Positions 58,431 to 64,000 of a stretch of DNA of 64,000 nucleotides are shown here, piece by piece. The stretch's first letter is position 1. Each line of letters begins with the position of its first letter. The notes under the pieces are model-generated. The model was not told the origin of the DNA and made no database searches. It worked only from the letters and a program-made list of their open reading frames with translations. This DNA is from Acrocarpospora phusangensis (lineage in GTDB: Bacteria > Actinomycetota > Actinomycetes > Streptosporangiales > Streptosporangiaceae). The position numbers and the translations under genes were made by a program. Where the stretch lies: the NCBI RefSeq assembly GCF_016862995.1, contig NZ_BOOA01000037.1, forward strand, positions 1-64,000. Reading direction: 5' to 3'.

Positions 58431-58505
58431 GCCCCCTTAGCTCAGGGGATAGAGCACCGGCCTCCGGAGCCGGGAGCGCAAGTTCGAATCTTGCAGGGGG
58501 CACCA
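58431..58505 (+). tRNA. tRNA-Arg (CCG)
   Basis: Full cloverleaf: acceptor GCCCCCT/AGGGGGC, D-arm around AGCTCAGGGGATAGAGC, anticodon stem CCGGC/GCCGG with loop CTCCGGA (anticodon CCG), TΨC arm with GTTCGAATC, discriminator A and encoded CCA at 58503-58505. It reads CGG arginine codons. Confidence 0.97.
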
Positions 58506-59532: not shown

Positions 59533-59633
59533 CCGATGCCCTTCGACGGTGCGATGATGGTCCGCCTCCGACGGCGTCCGGCAACAGCATCGCCACCCCG
59601 TGCACGGCAATCGCATTACTTCTGCACCACAGA

Positions 59634-59671
59634 AACGGGCGGGGCTCCAGTCTTACGGAGTCCCGCCCGTT
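59634..59671. terminator. 15-bp hairpin between two secreted-protein genes
   Basis: AACGGGCGGGGCTCC (59634-59648) pairs with GGAGTCCCGCCCGTT (59657-59671) with one G-U and an 8-base loop. On the minus strand it follows the 108-aa protein gene, fitting a terminator. The rest of the 221-bp gap shows nothing. Confidence 0.75.
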
Positions 59672-59753
59672 CTCGTTGGCGCTCGGTGGGTGTGAGCCTG
59701 CTTCGATCGGTTCCGCTCGCCCGGCCAAGCAACTTGCGTAGCGCTTGCGGATA

Positions 59754-60080: not shown

Positions 60081-60270
60081 TACTTTCCTTTCCCTTCGTG
60101 TGCTGCCTCACTTCGTCAATCTCAAGCGTCGTCGCCGGCCGTATATTGGTTGTACATTTCCACCGGACGTGGCTGCCGATAATTCGTCTCTGCAGGTCGC
60201 GGGCGCATCCTCCGGCCGGTGAGCCGTGGACAGGTCGGCTTCGCGTTGGTCTTCTGGCGCCTGGGCTGAA

Positions 60271-60290
60271 TTGAGTAGGGACGTACTCAA
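60271..60290. promoter_or_regulatory. Inverted repeat upstream of the EACC1 operon
   Basis: TTGAGTA-GGGACG-TACTCAA, seven perfect base pairs around six bases, 34 bp before the EACC1 start. A candidate operator or promoter element controlling the conflict module. The remaining 60081-60270 stretch holds no gene. Confidence 0.6.
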
Positions 60291-60323
60291 GTGCCGGGCC
60301 GTGGATCCTCCCATGCTCCTGAT

Positions 60324-60728
60324 GTGACTGTTCTGCTGATCATTACGGCCCAGGACTCGGCTGACGGAGTCCGCGATCTGTACGCGTGGCTCCGGGAGGA
60401 ACCGGAACTGCGCGGCCTCGTCCGCGTGGTCGACGCGGAGATCCAGCCCGGCGCGCTGGGCGCCGGGACCGACGGGCTTCAGGTGCTCCTCGGTGCGGGA
60501 GGCGCAGTGGCCACGCTGGCGACCGTGGTGGTCGCCTGGCTGCGGACTCGGCGCGGGGAAGTGAGCGTGAGCCTGACCAGGGGTACCGAGGAGACCCGGG
60601 TCGAGGTGACCGCCAAGGGTGTGAAATCGCTGGACGTCGCGGCCGCGCGGGCGCTGACCAGCCACATCGCCGAGGTCCTCCGCGAGACCGCCCCTCAAAG
60701 TGGCGGAGGCGATAGCGGTGAGGGCTGA
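60324..60728 (+). CDS. Effector-associated constant component EACC1
   Basis: A 134-aa protein with the EACC1 pattern: LRDLYAWLREEPELRGLVRVVDAEIQPGALGAGTDGLQVLLGAGGAVATLATVVVAWLRTRRGEVSVSLTR…VEVTAKGV. One hydrophobic helix (~62-80) followed by RTRR suggests membrane association. EACC1 is known from comparative genomics as the fixed partner of variable effector proteases and NTPases in predicted bacterial conflict systems. It overlaps the caspase-NTPase gene by 11 bp, so the two are translated together. Start GTG 60324 gives the usual TVLLIITA opening. Confidence 0.85.
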   Translation: MTVLLIITAQDSADGVRDLYAWLREEPELRGLVRVVDAEIQPGALGAGTDGLQVLLGAGGAVATLATVVVAWLRTRRGEVSVSLTRGTEETRVEVTAKGVKSLDVAAARALTSHIAEVLRETAPQSGGGDSGEG

Positions 60729-63700
60729 GCCTGGGCGGTCGATGCTCGCGGTGCCCGGGGCGCGGGTGCTGATCGTCGGATCGGGGACCTATGCCGCCGG
60801 GTCGACGCTGACCGCCGTTCCCGCCATTCCGGACACGGTCGCCGACCTCGGGCGCTGCCTGGTGGAGCGGTGCGGGCTGGATCCGTCGCACCTGACGACC
60901 CTGGTCGACCCCCAGGATCCCCGTGAGTTCGCCCACGCCCTGGCCCGTACGGCCGGCGAGGCGAGCGACGTCCTGGTCGTCTACTACGTCGGCCACGGCC
61001 TGGTCAGCCCCCGCAACGAACTGCATCTCGCCACCTACTCGACGATCGACCTGACCGAGGGCGTCCCCGCCTACGAGGCGTTGCCGTACGCGGTGATGCG
61101 GGAGGTGCTGACCGACTGCCGGGCGCCGCTGGTGCTGGTCGTGCTGGACTGCTGCTTCTCCGGCCGGGCTCAGGGGGTCAGCCGGGGCGACGTGGACGAG
61201 GTGTTCAAGACGACGCAGCGGTCAGGGGCGTACGTGCTGACCTCGACGAGCGGCGACGAGGTGGCCTGGGCTCCGCCGGGGGAGCGGCACACCGCGTTCA
61301 GCGGGGCGCTCATCAAACTGCTCACGGCGGGGGACGCCACCGCTCCCCGGTCGCTGACCATTGACGACGCCTACCGGTCGCTGGCGCGGACCCTGATGGC
61401 CGCCGGTCTGCCGGAGCCGCGACGTCAGGCCGCCGACTACGGCGATCTGAAGGTGCTCGCGCCCAACGCCGCCTATCTCGGCGGGTCCGGTTCGACGGGG
61501 GAGCGGGCGGGGGAGTTCAGTCCGTACCGTGGGCTGGCCGCGTTCGGGGCGGCCGACGCGGACTTCTTCTTCGGGCGGTCGGAGCTGACGCTCTCGCTCA
61601 TCGACCGGGTCGCCGGGCAGTTCTCGCAGGTCGGCCCGCTCGTGGTGACCGGCCCGTCCGGCGCGGGCAAGTCGTCGCTGCTGTACGCCGGGCTGGTGCC
61701 CGCGCTGGAGGGCTCCTCGCGGGTGGACGGCAGGGCCACCGACTTCATGGTCCTCACGCCTGGGAGCGATCCGATGAGAACGCTGGCCGAGCGGTTCGCC
61801 CCGGCCGACGGCTCCCATCCGATGGACCTGCGGGAGCGGCTGCTGGCCGACCCCGGCCACTTCAGGAACGTGCTCAGGATCGCGTCGGCCGACTCCACCG
61901 GACGCGCGATCCTCATCGTCGACCAGTTCGAGGAGGTCTTCACGCTCTGTCCCGACGAGCAGGGCCGCCGGGCTTTCGTCCAGGCGCTGCACGCGGTCTG
62001 CGCCGACCCGGTGGAGGACGCGCCCGCCGTCGTCGTGATCGGCGTGCGGTCGGACTTCTTCGGGCACTGCGCCGCCTATCCCGAGCTGGTCGCCGCCCTC
62101 GGCCGGCCCGTGGTCGTCAGCCCGATGACGGCCGCCCAGCTGCGGGAGGTCATCGAGGGACCGGCCAGGCTGAGCGACCTCACGCTCCAGGACGGGCTCG
62201 TCGACCTCCTGCTCGAAGACCTCAGCACGAGCGCCGAACTCAGCTCGGTCGGCACCGGACGGGTCCTGCCGCTGCTGTCCCACGCGCTGCTCGCCACCTG
62301 GCACCACCGCGAGGACAGGACGCTGACGCTGGCCGGCTACCGGGCCACCGGCGGGATCAAGCGCGCGCTGGCCCAGACCGCCGACGAGACCCTCAAGCGC
62401 CTCGACCTGGGCGACCACGAGACCGCGCGGCGCCTTCTGGTCCGGCTGGTGCGGTTCGGCGAAGGCACCGAGGACACCCGCCGGAAGGTGCCGGTGGCGG
62501 AGCTGCTCCCCTCGGCCGCCTCGGCCCAGCACGACGACGCCCAGCATGTTCTGGACCGGTTCGTACACGCTCGCCTGCTGACCGTCGACGACGACGGCGT
62601 GGAGATCACCCACGAGGCGCTGATCCGCGCCTGGCCCCGGTTCAGGGCCTGGATCGAGGCGGACCGCACGGCTCTCGTGGTCCGTCAGCAGCTGGGCGAG
62701 GACGCCGTCAAGTGGCAGCGCAACAAGCGCGACCCGGCCTACCTGTACAGCGACAGCCGGGTGGCCGACGCCCGTGCCGCCGTGGCGGACCCGGCCGCGG
62801 AGCTGTCCGGCCTGGAGGCGGAGTTCCTGGCCGAGAGCACGCGGCGGGTGCGGCGCCGTACCAGGGTCACGTATCAGGTCATCGCGGCTCTCGCGGCCCT
62901 GCTCGTGCTGGCGTCGTCGGCACTCGTGTACGGGACGATGAAGAACGTCGAAGCCGTCGAACAGCGGGACGACGGCATCTCCCGCCGGGTCGCGGAGACG
63001 GCCCGCCGGATCAAGGACCCGCTGCTGGCCGCCCAGCTCGCCGTGGCCGCCCACAAGATCGCCCCGACCCCGGAGGCGCGCAGCGCGCTGCTGCGAACCC
63101 TCACCCACCCCATCGGCACCGCCGTCTCCGGCCACACCCACGCGGTGGACACCATCGCTTTCGGCCCCGACCGGGGGACGATGGCCACACTCTCCACCGG
63201 CGACGGCACGGTCCGGCTGTGGGACACCGGCGGGGCGGCCGGACCGGTGACGGTGAAGGTCCTGGGCAGCACGGCGGAGCCGATCGCCGGGATGGCGCTG
63301 AGCATCGACCGGCCGGTGATGGCCACCTGGACCGAGAACGCCGTCGAACTGTGGGACGTGAGCGACCCGGCCAGGCCGGCCCTGGCCCGGGAGGTACGCG
63401 TGGCGCAGAAGATCCACCTCGCCGCGCTGAGCGCCGACGGCCGCCGGCTGGCGATCGCGATGCCGCCGGGAGACTTCGACCAGGCGATCCAGGTCTTCGA
63501 CATCGAGACTCCCGCGAAACCGGTCGCCGGGGCGACCATGACCCTCACCTACCGGGTGTCCACCGGCAACGGCACCACCAAGGAGAGCGCCAAGGACCAC
63601 ATCCTGTTCAGCCCGGACGGCAGGACGCTGATCAGCCAGGCCGCCACGGAGCTTCAACTCTGGAACATCGCCGACATCGACGCGCCGGTGCCGCTTCCCC

Positions 63701-64000
63701 CGGTACGCGGCGGGGCGGTGGCCCTCACCGTCTCCCCCGACAGTTCGGCCCTCGCGATCAGCCGGAGTTCGGGCGCGGTGGAGTTCTGGGATGTCGACGG
63801 CGGGCACCCGATCCCCCGGGCCAAGGTCCAGGTCGGTACGGTGGCGGTGAACCATCTGGCGTTCGACGACACGGGCACCCGGCTCGCCACCGCGTTCGAG
63901 GACGGCGAGGTCCGGCTGTGGACCCGGATCGGCACCAGGTTCCCGGTCAGCGACTACCGCTTCAGGACCGGCGGGGACGCGCTCACCGCGCTCAACTTCG
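60718..64000 (+). CDS. Caspase-STAND NTPase-WD40 protein (3' end outside window)
   Basis: The frame runs open from GTG 60718 (GGAGG at 60705-60709) to the window edge, at least 1094 residues. Residues ~10-240: caspase-like protease with His93 in YYVGHG and catalytic Cys in VLDCCFSGRA (145/146). Residues ~265-700: STAND-type P-loop NTPase with GPSGAGKSS (~312) and Walker B ILIVDQFEE (~400), then winged-helix-like ITHEALIRAWPRF. A membrane helix lies at ~720-742 (VIAALAALLVLASSALVYG). From ~800 on are WD40-type propeller blades (GHTHAVDTIAFGPDRGTMATLSTGDGTVRLWD…VRLWT). The propeller would sense a trigger, the NTPase oligomerise and the protease be activated, as in known STAND/caspase defence proteins; this is inferred. 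Partner: EACC1. Confidence 0.9.
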   Translation, partial: MRAEPGRSMLAVPGARVLIVGSGTYAAGSTLTAVPAIPDTVADLGRCLVERCGLDPSHLTTLVDPQDPREFAHALARTAGEASDVLVVYYVGHGLVSPRNELHLATYSTIDLTEGVPAYEALPYAVMREVLTDCRAPLVLVVLDCCFSGRAQGVSRGDVDEVFKTTQRSGAYVLTSTSGDEVAWAPPGERHTAFSGALIKLLTAGDATAPRSLTIDDAYRSLARTLMAAGLPEPRRQAADYGDLKVLAPNAAYLGGSGSTGERAGEFSPYRGLAAFGAADADFFFGRSELTLSLIDRVAGQFSQVGPLVVTGPSGAGKSSLLYAGLVPALEGSSRVDGRATDFMVLTPGSDPMRTLAERFAPADGSHPMDLRERLLADPGHFRNVLRIASADSTGRAILIVDQFEEVFTLCPDEQGRRAFVQALHAVCADPVEDAPAVVVIGVRSDFFGHCAAYPELVAALGRPVVVSPMTAAQLREVIEGPARLSDLTLQDGLVDLLLEDLSTSAELSSVGTGRVLPLLSHALLATWHHREDRTLTLAGYRATGGIKRALAQTADETLKRLDLGDHETARRLLVRLVRFGEGTEDTRRKVPVAELLPSAASAQHDDAQHVLDRFVHARLLTVDDDGVEITHEALIRAWPRFRAWIEADRTALVVRQQLGEDAVKWQRNKRDPAYLYSDSRVADARAAVADPAAELSGLEAEFLAESTRRVRRRTRVTYQVIAALAALLVLASSALVYGTMKNVEAVEQRDDGISRRVAETARRIKDPLLAAQLAVAAHKIAPTPEARSALLRTLTHPIGTAVSGHTHAVDTIAFGPDRGTMATLSTGDGTVRLWDTGGAAGPVTVKVLGSTAEPIAGMALSIDRPVMATWTENAVELWDVSDPARPALAREVRVAQKIHLAALSADGRRLAIAMPPGDFDQAIQVFDIETPAKPVAGATMTLTYRVSTGNGTTKESAKDHILFSPDGRTLISQAATELQLWNIADIDAPVPLPPVRGGAVALTVSPDSSALAISRSSGAVEFWDVDGGHPIPRAKVQVGTVAVNHLAFDDTGTRLATAFEDGEVRLWTRIGTRFPVSDYRFRTGGDALTALNF

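What the first reader, a model, noticed from the sequence alone, without database searches (positions are those of the whole stretch)
60271..64000. EACC1 plus caspase-STAND-TM-WD40 gene pair: candidate abortive-infection module
An EACC1 gene overlaps by 11 bp a very long gene combining an intact caspase dyad (GHG, DCCFSG), an intact STAND P-loop NTPase, a membrane helix and a WD40 sensor. EACC1 systems are predicted conflict systems, but few are tested. Here protease, switch and sensor are on one polypeptide and the helix puts the propeller across or at the membrane. A TTGAGTA/TACTCAA inverted repeat sits before it.
Basis: partly seen in the sequence, partly recalled or inferred. Interest (0 to 1): 0.75.

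Follow-up and report, generated by a model that had tools for sequence, protein, structure and literature searches.

The report
EACC1 pair with membrane-anchored caspase sensor
An actinobacterium carries a two-gene, probably immune-like device in which a caspase-type protease, a molecular switch and a large propeller-shaped sensor are strung on one protein through the cell membrane; the kind was predicted in 2020, but here the sensor appears to sit outside the cell and to change quickly.

Summary
The window holds an EACC1 gene (60324-60728) overlapping a caspase-nSTAND1-TM-WD40 gene that runs intact to contig position 65163 (1487 aa). Caspase His and Cys are kept in 23 of 23 proteins with the caspase in frame, this one included; Walker A/B in 24 of 24. 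It is a new member of a known kind: the two-gene EACC1 system ('System 4') of Kaur 2020; my searches listed no test of it. It is patchy (at least 53 of 200 family genomes hold an EACC1-caspase pair) and lies in a variable region after tRNA-Arg(CCG). Nine downstream genes scanned gave no convincing defence match. What I add: charge bias at the helix (23 of 24), paired cysteines only beyond it, and propellers that evolve faster than caspase and STAND in this pair of genomes (dN/dS 0.73 versus 0.25; weak in the one other caspase-type pair) point to a double propeller OUTSIDE the membrane: a receptor-caspase. An EACC1 model questions its published transmembrane helix. Abortive infection stays plausible but unshown.

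The parts
60271..60290 (.). Inverted repeat TTGAGTA-N6-TACTCAA, 33 bp before the likely EACC1 start; candidate operator
   Evidence: 3 exact copies in own genome, 0 in reversed control; with up to 1 mismatch 24 sites in 5 genomes of the genus versus 2 control sites; one mismatch in the G002 copy of the locus
60324..60728 (+). EACC1 gene (134 aa)
   Evidence: PF19953 E 4.1e-28; dN/dS 0.16 against G002; AF2 model pLDDT 84.4, pTM 0.77
60718..64000 (+). Caspase-nSTAND1-TM-double-WD40 gene; continues to contig position 65163 (longest frame from GTG 60700, 1487 aa)
   Evidence: complete frame in L004:3701-8164
60925..61338 (+). Caspase (Peptidase_C14) domain, residues 76-213; His99 codon 60994-60996, Cys152 codon 61153-61155
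   Evidence: Pfam E 9.8e-08; His and Cys kept in 23 of 23 proteins with the caspase in frame, this one included
61522..62736 (+). nSTAND1 NTPase, residues 275-679; Walker A Lys324, Walker B VDQFEE
   Evidence: Pfam E 2.3e-122; Walker A Lys and Walker B Asp in 24 of 24 proteins, this one included
62878..62934 (+). Transmembrane helix, residues 727-745, preceded by RRVRRRTR
   Evidence: Kyte-Doolittle mean 2.29 (best 19-residue stretch); more Lys/Arg on the N-terminal flank in 23 of 24 proteins
63100..64000 (+). First part of the 14-blade WD40 region (residues 801-1448; the rest lies beyond the window), ended by a tail with a Cys-X24-Cys pair (beyond the window)
   Evidence: 14 blade motifs; AF2 of the homologous L075 region pLDDT 94.5, read as 14 blades; dN/dS 0.73; tail pair
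58431..58505 (+). tRNA-Arg(CCG), edge of the conserved chromosome; the variable region with the pair begins after it
   Evidence: ARAGORN; homology to G003 and G004 ends at its last bases

Best explanation
A membrane receptor-protease of the EACC1 class. SHOWN by sequence: an EACC1 gene and, overlapping it, one protein with an intact caspase domain, an intact nSTAND1 switch, one hydrophobic helix and 14 WD40 blades ending in a conserved cysteine pair; patchy occurrence in a tRNA-adjacent variable region; in the one close pair of alleles, fast-evolving propellers on slowly evolving caspase, STAND and EACC1. INFERRED: the 14 blades form two seven-bladed propellers; the caspase and STAND face the cytoplasm and the propellers face outside (about 80% likely). 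An external or envelope signal (phage adsorption or injection, envelope damage, or a neighbour's protein) binds the propellers; the signal crosses the helix and the three-helix linker; nSTAND1 exchanges nucleotide and clusters; clustered caspase domains activate and cut cytoplasmic targets; EACC1 is the constant partner that gates or recruits the protease at the membrane. The likely outcome is death or arrest of the cell or hyphal compartment that protects the mycelium. Identity as an EACC1 system is near certain; the outward topology is likely; the death outcome is the weakest step. The confidence given is for this whole chain.
For: Domains and active sites. EACC1 directly 5' of the caspase gene in 15 of 24 caspase-nSTAND1 loci, and within 700 bases 5' of 71 of the 95 caspase stretches counted in 200 family genomes. 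Topology: N-flank richer in Lys/Arg in 23 of 24; number of cysteines after the helix even in 18 of 22 complete caspase-type proteins and 49 of 54 complete nSTAND1 relatives without caspase, versus 10 of 21 and 26 of 54 before the helix; tail Cys pair in 21 of 22 and 45 of 54. In 40 aligned C-terminal regions only three columns are invariant and two are that Cys pair (22 of the 40 rows were chosen because they had the pair, and L065, L083 and L096 were left out). In the 2020 description a periplasmic-binding domain can follow a TM helix in this position. Sensor-like rates between G000 and G002: dN/dS caspase 0.25, STAND 0.25, linker 0.19, WD40 0.73, 33-residue tail 0, EACC1 0.16; this WD40 omega is the highest of 42 close pairs compared, and WD40 dN exceeds STAND dN in 42 of 42. 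Apaf-1 is one of many double-propeller fold matches (3sfz, rank 6, TMq 0.51).
Against: No experiment. Positive-inside and cysteine parity are indirect, and the relatives are not independent. No control set of cytosolic WD40 domains was measured. 9 of 24 caspase-nSTAND1 proteins lack a detectable EACC1 directly 5' (one of these has it 3'), so EACC1 is dispensable for some or acts from elsewhere. Only 2 of the 42 pairs are caspase-type, and in the other one (L075/L077) the contrast is weak (dN ratio 1.20, omega 0.35 versus 0.44); in 1 of 42 pairs (L109/L122) WD40 omega is below STAND omega; the unchanged tail is not seen in other pairs. Fast WD40 change may be relaxed constraint: in the fastest blades omega is 0.92 (95% 0.64-1.40, blades picked after seeing the data). 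No convincing defence gene among the neighbours scanned.
Confidence: 0.42

Rival explanations
1. The 2020 model: EACC1 is a membrane-embedded sensor; it switches on the caspase, which by autoproteolysis frees the C-terminal module as the effector.
For: Proposed for the family (passages read): TM of EACC1 strongly conserved with a patch of small residues; up to 50 alternative C-terminal domains. EACC1 is the slowly evolving part here too (omega 0.16).
Against: The C-terminal module here is nSTAND1, a membrane helix and propellers predicted outside; freeing it would leave no obvious cytoplasmic toxin. The AF2 model of EACC1 puts the hydrophobic stretch into a strand plus a 14-residue helix within an alpha/beta fold, too short to span a bilayer; but only 15 sequences were used and hydropathy does allow a TM.
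Confidence: 0.2
2. Cytosolic apoptosome-like sensor: the whole protein is in the cytoplasm, the hydrophobic helix only docks it to the membrane, and the propellers recognise a phage protein as characterised STAND defence proteins do.
For: Caspase-STAND-WD40 order and the Apaf-1 fold match (not specific to Apaf-1); metacaspase-NACHT-WD40 is described as widely distributed (passages).
Against: Best 19-residue hydropathy of 2.03-3.02 in 24 of 24, flank charge bias in 23 of 24, and paired cysteines on the far side.
Confidence: 0.18
3. Not immunity: a receptor-caspase for development or stress signalling (mycelial cell death, sporulation, envelope stress), moving with accessory DNA by chance.
For: The inverted repeat before the pair is shared with peptidase and lectin genes, which suggests a common regulator; no convincing defence gene among the neighbours scanned.
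Against: Patchy presence (at least 53 of 200 family genomes have a pair; 3 of 5 in the genus have the long caspase-STAND type) and fast propeller change in this pair of alleles fit conflict better than a fixed developmental role.
Confidence: 0.2

Closest known systems
EACC1 two-gene conflict system, 'System 4' of Kaur et al. 2020 (PMC7159879; passages read)
   Same: 5' EACC1 gene, 3' gene with N-terminal caspase and a variable C-terminal part; STAND NTPases and TM segments listed among the variable parts; actinobacteria
   Different: Here the variable part is nSTAND1-TM-propellers, read as switch plus outward sensor rather than effector; the EACC1 model does not show a membrane-spanning helix
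nSTAND1 NTPases (PMC8195603; passages read)
   Same: PF20703 over its full length, Walker A and B intact; the paper notes nSTAND1 in EACC1 systems
   Different: The passage read links nSTAND1 to FGS-domain sensors; here it is joined to a membrane helix and WD40 blades
Prokaryotic metacaspase-NACHT-WD40 proteins (PMC3501461; passages read)
   Same: Caspase, STAND-type NTPase and WD40 on one chain
   Different: NTPase is nSTAND1, a TM helix separates switch and propellers, and an EACC1 gene precedes it
Apaf-1 apoptosome
   Same: STAND switch with two WD40 propellers; fold match 3sfz
   Different: Apaf-1 is cytosolic and recruits a separate caspase (general knowledge; partly); here the caspase is fused and the propellers are predicted outside
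Mycobacterial PknD-type receptors (recalled, no call)
   Same: Cytoplasmic enzyme, one TM helix, outward beta-propeller
   Different: Kinase, not caspase; no STAND switch

Membership tests
EACC1 two-gene system (Kaur 2020 System 4) | 5' gene encodes an EACC1 domain | tested here: met
   PF19953 97.9 bits against cut-off 23.6
EACC1 two-gene system (Kaur 2020 System 4) | 3' gene encodes an N-terminal caspase with catalytic His and Cys | tested here: met
   Peptidase_C14 E 9.8e-08; His99 and Cys152 kept in 23 of 23
EACC1 two-gene system (Kaur 2020 System 4) | C-terminal part varies between close relatives while EACC1-caspase stays | tested here: met
   Pairs of G001 and G004 in the same genus have frames of 460 and 439 codons, the own second pair on C6 639, this one 1501
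EACC1 two-gene system (Kaur 2020 System 4) | EACC1 is a single transmembrane helix with short extensions | tested here: inconclusive
   19-residue hydropathy maximum 1.99 allows a TM; AF2 gives strand 50-55 plus helix 61-74 in an alpha/beta fold, pLDDT 84; Foldseek only weak ferredoxin-like matches
EACC1 two-gene system (Kaur 2020 System 4) | Counter-invader activity | not testable with these tools
   No assay; none listed in the paper searches
nSTAND1 NTPase | Full-length PF20703 with Walker A and B | tested here: met
   E 2.3e-122, profile 1-378 of 379; Walker Lys/Asp in 24 of 24
Abortive-infection defence system | Lies among defence genes | tested here: inconclusive
   9 downstream proteins of the own contig and one G002 neighbour gave only weak partial PADLOC matches; upstream genes were seen by Pfam only
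Abortive-infection defence system | Patchy, mobile or hot-spot location | tested here: met
   At least 53 of 200 family genomes have a pair; conserved chromosome ends at the tRNA-Arg 3' end in G003 and G004
Abortive-infection defence system | Infected cells die and phage titre falls | not testable with these tools
   needs phage challenge
Apaf-1-like apoptosome | NB-ARC-type switch in a cytosolic protein with the caspase recruited in trans | tested here: not met
   nSTAND1 is the matching family, caspase in cis, TM helix before the propellers

The most novel reading that the evidence does not exclude
A bacterial receptor-caspase: one protein senses at the cell surface with a fast-changing double propeller closed by a disulfide and, across one membrane helix, switches a STAND-caspase executioner inside. 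The nSTAND1-TM-WD40 part of this design is shared by many actinobacterial proteins without caspase (54 complete relatives examined), so the same outward-sensing rule would hold for a whole unstudied receptor class. EACC1 would then be a soluble or peripheral ferredoxin-like partner, not a membrane helix.
Probability: 0.45. Interest if true: 0.72.

Novelty: new member of a known kind. Interest (0 to 1): 0.45.

Why it matters
EACC1 systems were predicted in 2020, and my searches of the held library listed no experimental test. This locus gives a compact, intact example with a close natural variant (G002, 89% protein identity; propeller dN about two and a half times that of the enzyme parts) that allows a specificity swap. 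If the propellers are outside, bacterial caspase-STAND proteins include surface receptors, which changes what signals one should look for: envelope and adsorption events, not only intracellular phage products.

Tried and rejected
Frameshift or pseudogene: rejected, frame complete over 1487 aa. Core housekeeping locus: rejected, patchy. Inverted repeat as part of the module or an insertion end: considered because G000-G002 homology starts at 60270; rejected as specific, since the same palindrome lies before peptidase (5) and lectin (3) genes in 8 of the 16 sites looked at (Pfam run on five of these genes). Integrase beside the tRNA: short frames next to the same tRNA in G003 looked to me like tyrosine-recombinase remnants (motif recalled), but Pfam gave no match, so I do not claim it. 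Near-identical WD40 repeats that would feed sensor recombination: none. Variable residues confined to one propeller face: not supported (top versus bottom loops p 0.12); loops do vary more than strands a-c (53 of 282 versus 26 of 236 residues, p 0.014), and blades differ (chi-square p 0.00025, printed before it stopped on a file error; rates per blade). Foldseek for EACC1: only weak ferredoxin-like/GlnK matches (best E 0.027, TMq 0.40), so no homology is claimed. PDB sequence search: caspase part only to metacaspase-4, E 0.004; EACC1 none.

In one search four loci (L106, L115, L127, L131) gave no frame, and open-ended frames were skipped. For relatives without caspase the 'before the helix' count used only the 450 residues before it. 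In one search I used 88 of the 121 EACC1 rows (43 bits or more) and 95 of the 97 caspase rows (two second pieces of split matches dropped). Searches scored a capped number of candidates per genome (G003 shows 2 EACC1 matches there, 3), so all family counts are lower bounds.
Full report
What is there. The window is the first 64,000 bases of contig C37 (87,155 bases) of a 9.1 Mb genome. EACC1 is found by Pfam at E 4.1e-28, and the next gene carries nSTAND1 (E 2.3e-122), Peptidase_C14 (E 9.8e-08) and WD40. Downstream sequence completes the gene: L004:3701-8164, contig 60700-65163, 1487 aa, no stop or frameshift.

Relatives. A scan of named genomes kept the best 80 of 511 confirmed loci: 77 actinobacterial and 3 Chloroflexi MAGs by title; nearest by identity are Planotetraspora silvatica, Nonomuraea sp. 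PA05, a Streptosporangiaceae isolate and Planomonospora venezuelensis. 21 of the 80 encode the caspase as well as nSTAND1; with the copies of G000, G002 and G003 there are 24. A hydrophobic helix is found after the STAND part in 24 of 24, followed by 637-1119 residues in 23 of them (L065 is cut by its contig end soon after the helix). 18 of these C-terminal parts, aligned with 22 from relatives without caspase, give a WD40 consensus. Caspase His and Cys are kept in 23 of 23 with the caspase in frame; Walker A Lys and Walker B Asp in 24 of 24. EACC1 lies directly 5' in 15 of 24 and 3' in one more. So the architecture is a recurring one, not a singleton.

Distribution. In the genus, 5 of 5 genomes have an EACC1 gene, but the long caspase-STAND type occurs in 3 of 5: G000, G002 at 92% and G003 at 49%. 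G001 and G004 carry EACC1-caspase pairs with much shorter frames. Of 200 family genomes (these five included), 72 have EACC1, 64 a caspase of this type at E 1e-12 or better and 53 a pair within 700 bases; 28 caspase frames are 1300-1700 codons long, in 23 genomes, 17 of them with EACC1 directly 5'. These are lower bounds. This is the constant-plus-variable, patchy pattern described for the family in 2020.

Location. The block before the pair is conserved in the genus. In G003 and G004 homology stops at the last bases of tRNA-Arg(CCG) (58431-58505); in G002 it runs about 70 bases further, some 500 bases before the contig ends; in G001 the contig ends before the tRNA. After the tRNA the content differs between genomes. 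Between G000 and G002 the pair is 92% identical over 60270-65166; its immediate flanks differ except for a 64-base element, and a 2.1 kb segment at 81530-83606 is shared in the same order and orientation, so the two pairs may sit in the same accessory region. 3' fragments of the tRNA lie elsewhere in G002 and G001, which fits an integration hot spot, but I found no confirmed integrase. Genes near the pair are metabolic, regulatory or unknown, and PADLOC gave no convincing match for the 9 downstream genes scanned. In G002 an NB-ARC protein is encoded divergently next to the pair.

Topology. The helix at residues 727-745 is preceded by RRVRRRTR and followed by a less positive stretch; Lys and Arg are more frequent on the N-terminal flank in 23 of 24 proteins. 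The number of cysteines after the helix is even in 67 of 76 complete proteins (18 of 22 with caspase, 49 of 54 without), while before the helix it is even in 36 of 75 (10 of 21; 26 of 54). 49 of 76 have exactly two; a tail pair 18-28 residues apart, often 24, is found in 21 of 22 and 45 of 54. In 40 aligned C-terminal regions these two cysteines and one alanine are the only invariant columns, with the caution that 22 of the rows were picked for having the pair. Shared ancestry weakens all such counts, and no cytosolic WD40 control was measured. The simplest reading is a disulfide in an oxidising place, so the propellers lie outside. The 2020 paper already reports a periplasmic-binding domain behind a TM helix in this position, and the 2012 survey reports a metacaspase with a predicted outward CHASE2 domain.

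Propellers. The homologous region of L075 was modelled at pLDDT 94.5 and pTM 0.89: three linker helices, strands that I read as 14 blades with a weak spot between blades 7 and 8, and a short helical tail with both cysteines; two seven-bladed propellers are my inference. Foldseek ranks a repetitive propeller (2ymu) first and full-length Apaf-1 (3sfz) sixth; many other double-propeller proteins score about as well, so the match is to the fold, not to Apaf-1 in particular.

Rates. Between G000 and G002, dN/dS is 0.25 in caspase, 0.25 in STAND, 0.19 in the TM-linker part, 0.73 in WD40 and 0 in the 33-residue tail; dS is 0.13-0.16 in the four large parts and 0.25 in the tail. EACC1 has 0.16 at dS 0.36. 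The omega ratio of WD40 to residues 1-700 has a bootstrap median of 2.9 (95% 1.9-4.7). Over 42 close pairs, many of them overlapping and all but two without caspase, WD40 dN exceeds STAND dN in 42 and WD40 omega exceeds STAND omega in 41; this pair has the highest WD40 omega, but the other caspase-type pair (L075/L077) shows little contrast (0.35 versus 0.44), and the tail is not specially conserved in other pairs. Changes gather in blades 2-5 and 8-11 and spare 7 and 12-14. dS is not raised there, so import of a diverged segment is unlikely; relaxed constraint is not excluded, since omega does not exceed 1 significantly.

EACC1. The published description is a single TM helix with short extensions. 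The AF2 model from 15 sequences is an alpha/beta domain in which the hydrophobic stretch is a strand (50-55), a glycine turn and a 14-residue helix (61-74). Weak ferredoxin-like matches follow. Hydropathy alone would allow a TM. I regard the membrane status of EACC1 as open.

Regulation. The palindrome TTGAGTA-N6-TACTCAA is a true dispersed motif: 3 exact sites against 0 in the control in this genome, and 24 against 2 with up to one mismatch in five genomes. It also precedes leishmanolysin-like and ricin-lectin genes. It suggests that the pair is under a shared regulator in this species and in G002.

Literature. 'EACC1' occurs in 13 papers of the library; by title only PMC7159879 and PMC8195603 concern this system. 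Further searches listed no experimental test of it. One listed paper (PMC12799240; [quoted passage not shown] I read passages only of PMC7159879, PMC8195603, PMC3501461 and PMC10907252. Preprints and most subscription papers are not in the library.

Verdict. Correct observation of a known kind of predicted system, complete and intact. The outward-sensor reading is the new element and is testable. Abortive infection is plausible but rests on family prediction.

Noticed in passing
L005:4623-6478 (own contig C50, 32122-33977): A second EACC1 gene with no caspase match next to it; followed by an HTH_66/DUF433 protein and a PIN_10 protein, a toxin-antitoxin-like pair.
   Followed up: partly
own contig C6:27944-29006: A third EACC1, with a caspase gene of a different, shorter type directly 3'.
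   Followed up: no
60271-60290; L161, L162, L164-L169: Dispersed palindrome TTGAGTA-N6-TACTCAA before leishmanolysin-like peptidase and ricin-lectin genes as well as this pair; I do not know a regulator for it and did not search papers for it.
   Followed up: partly
L148:1090-1139 and L149:8817-8861: 3' fragments of tRNA-Arg(CCG) away from the full gene in G002 and G001; possible attachment-site remnants.
   Followed up: partly
59631-59694: A 60-base GC-rich hairpin-like element that also lies just before the pair in G002 and beside a tRNA fragment in G001.
   Followed up: no
L079-L144, C-terminal tails: The tail Cys pair is shared by 45 of 54 complete nSTAND1-TM proteins without caspase; possibly a large class of outward-facing actinobacterial STAND receptors.
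   Followed up: partly
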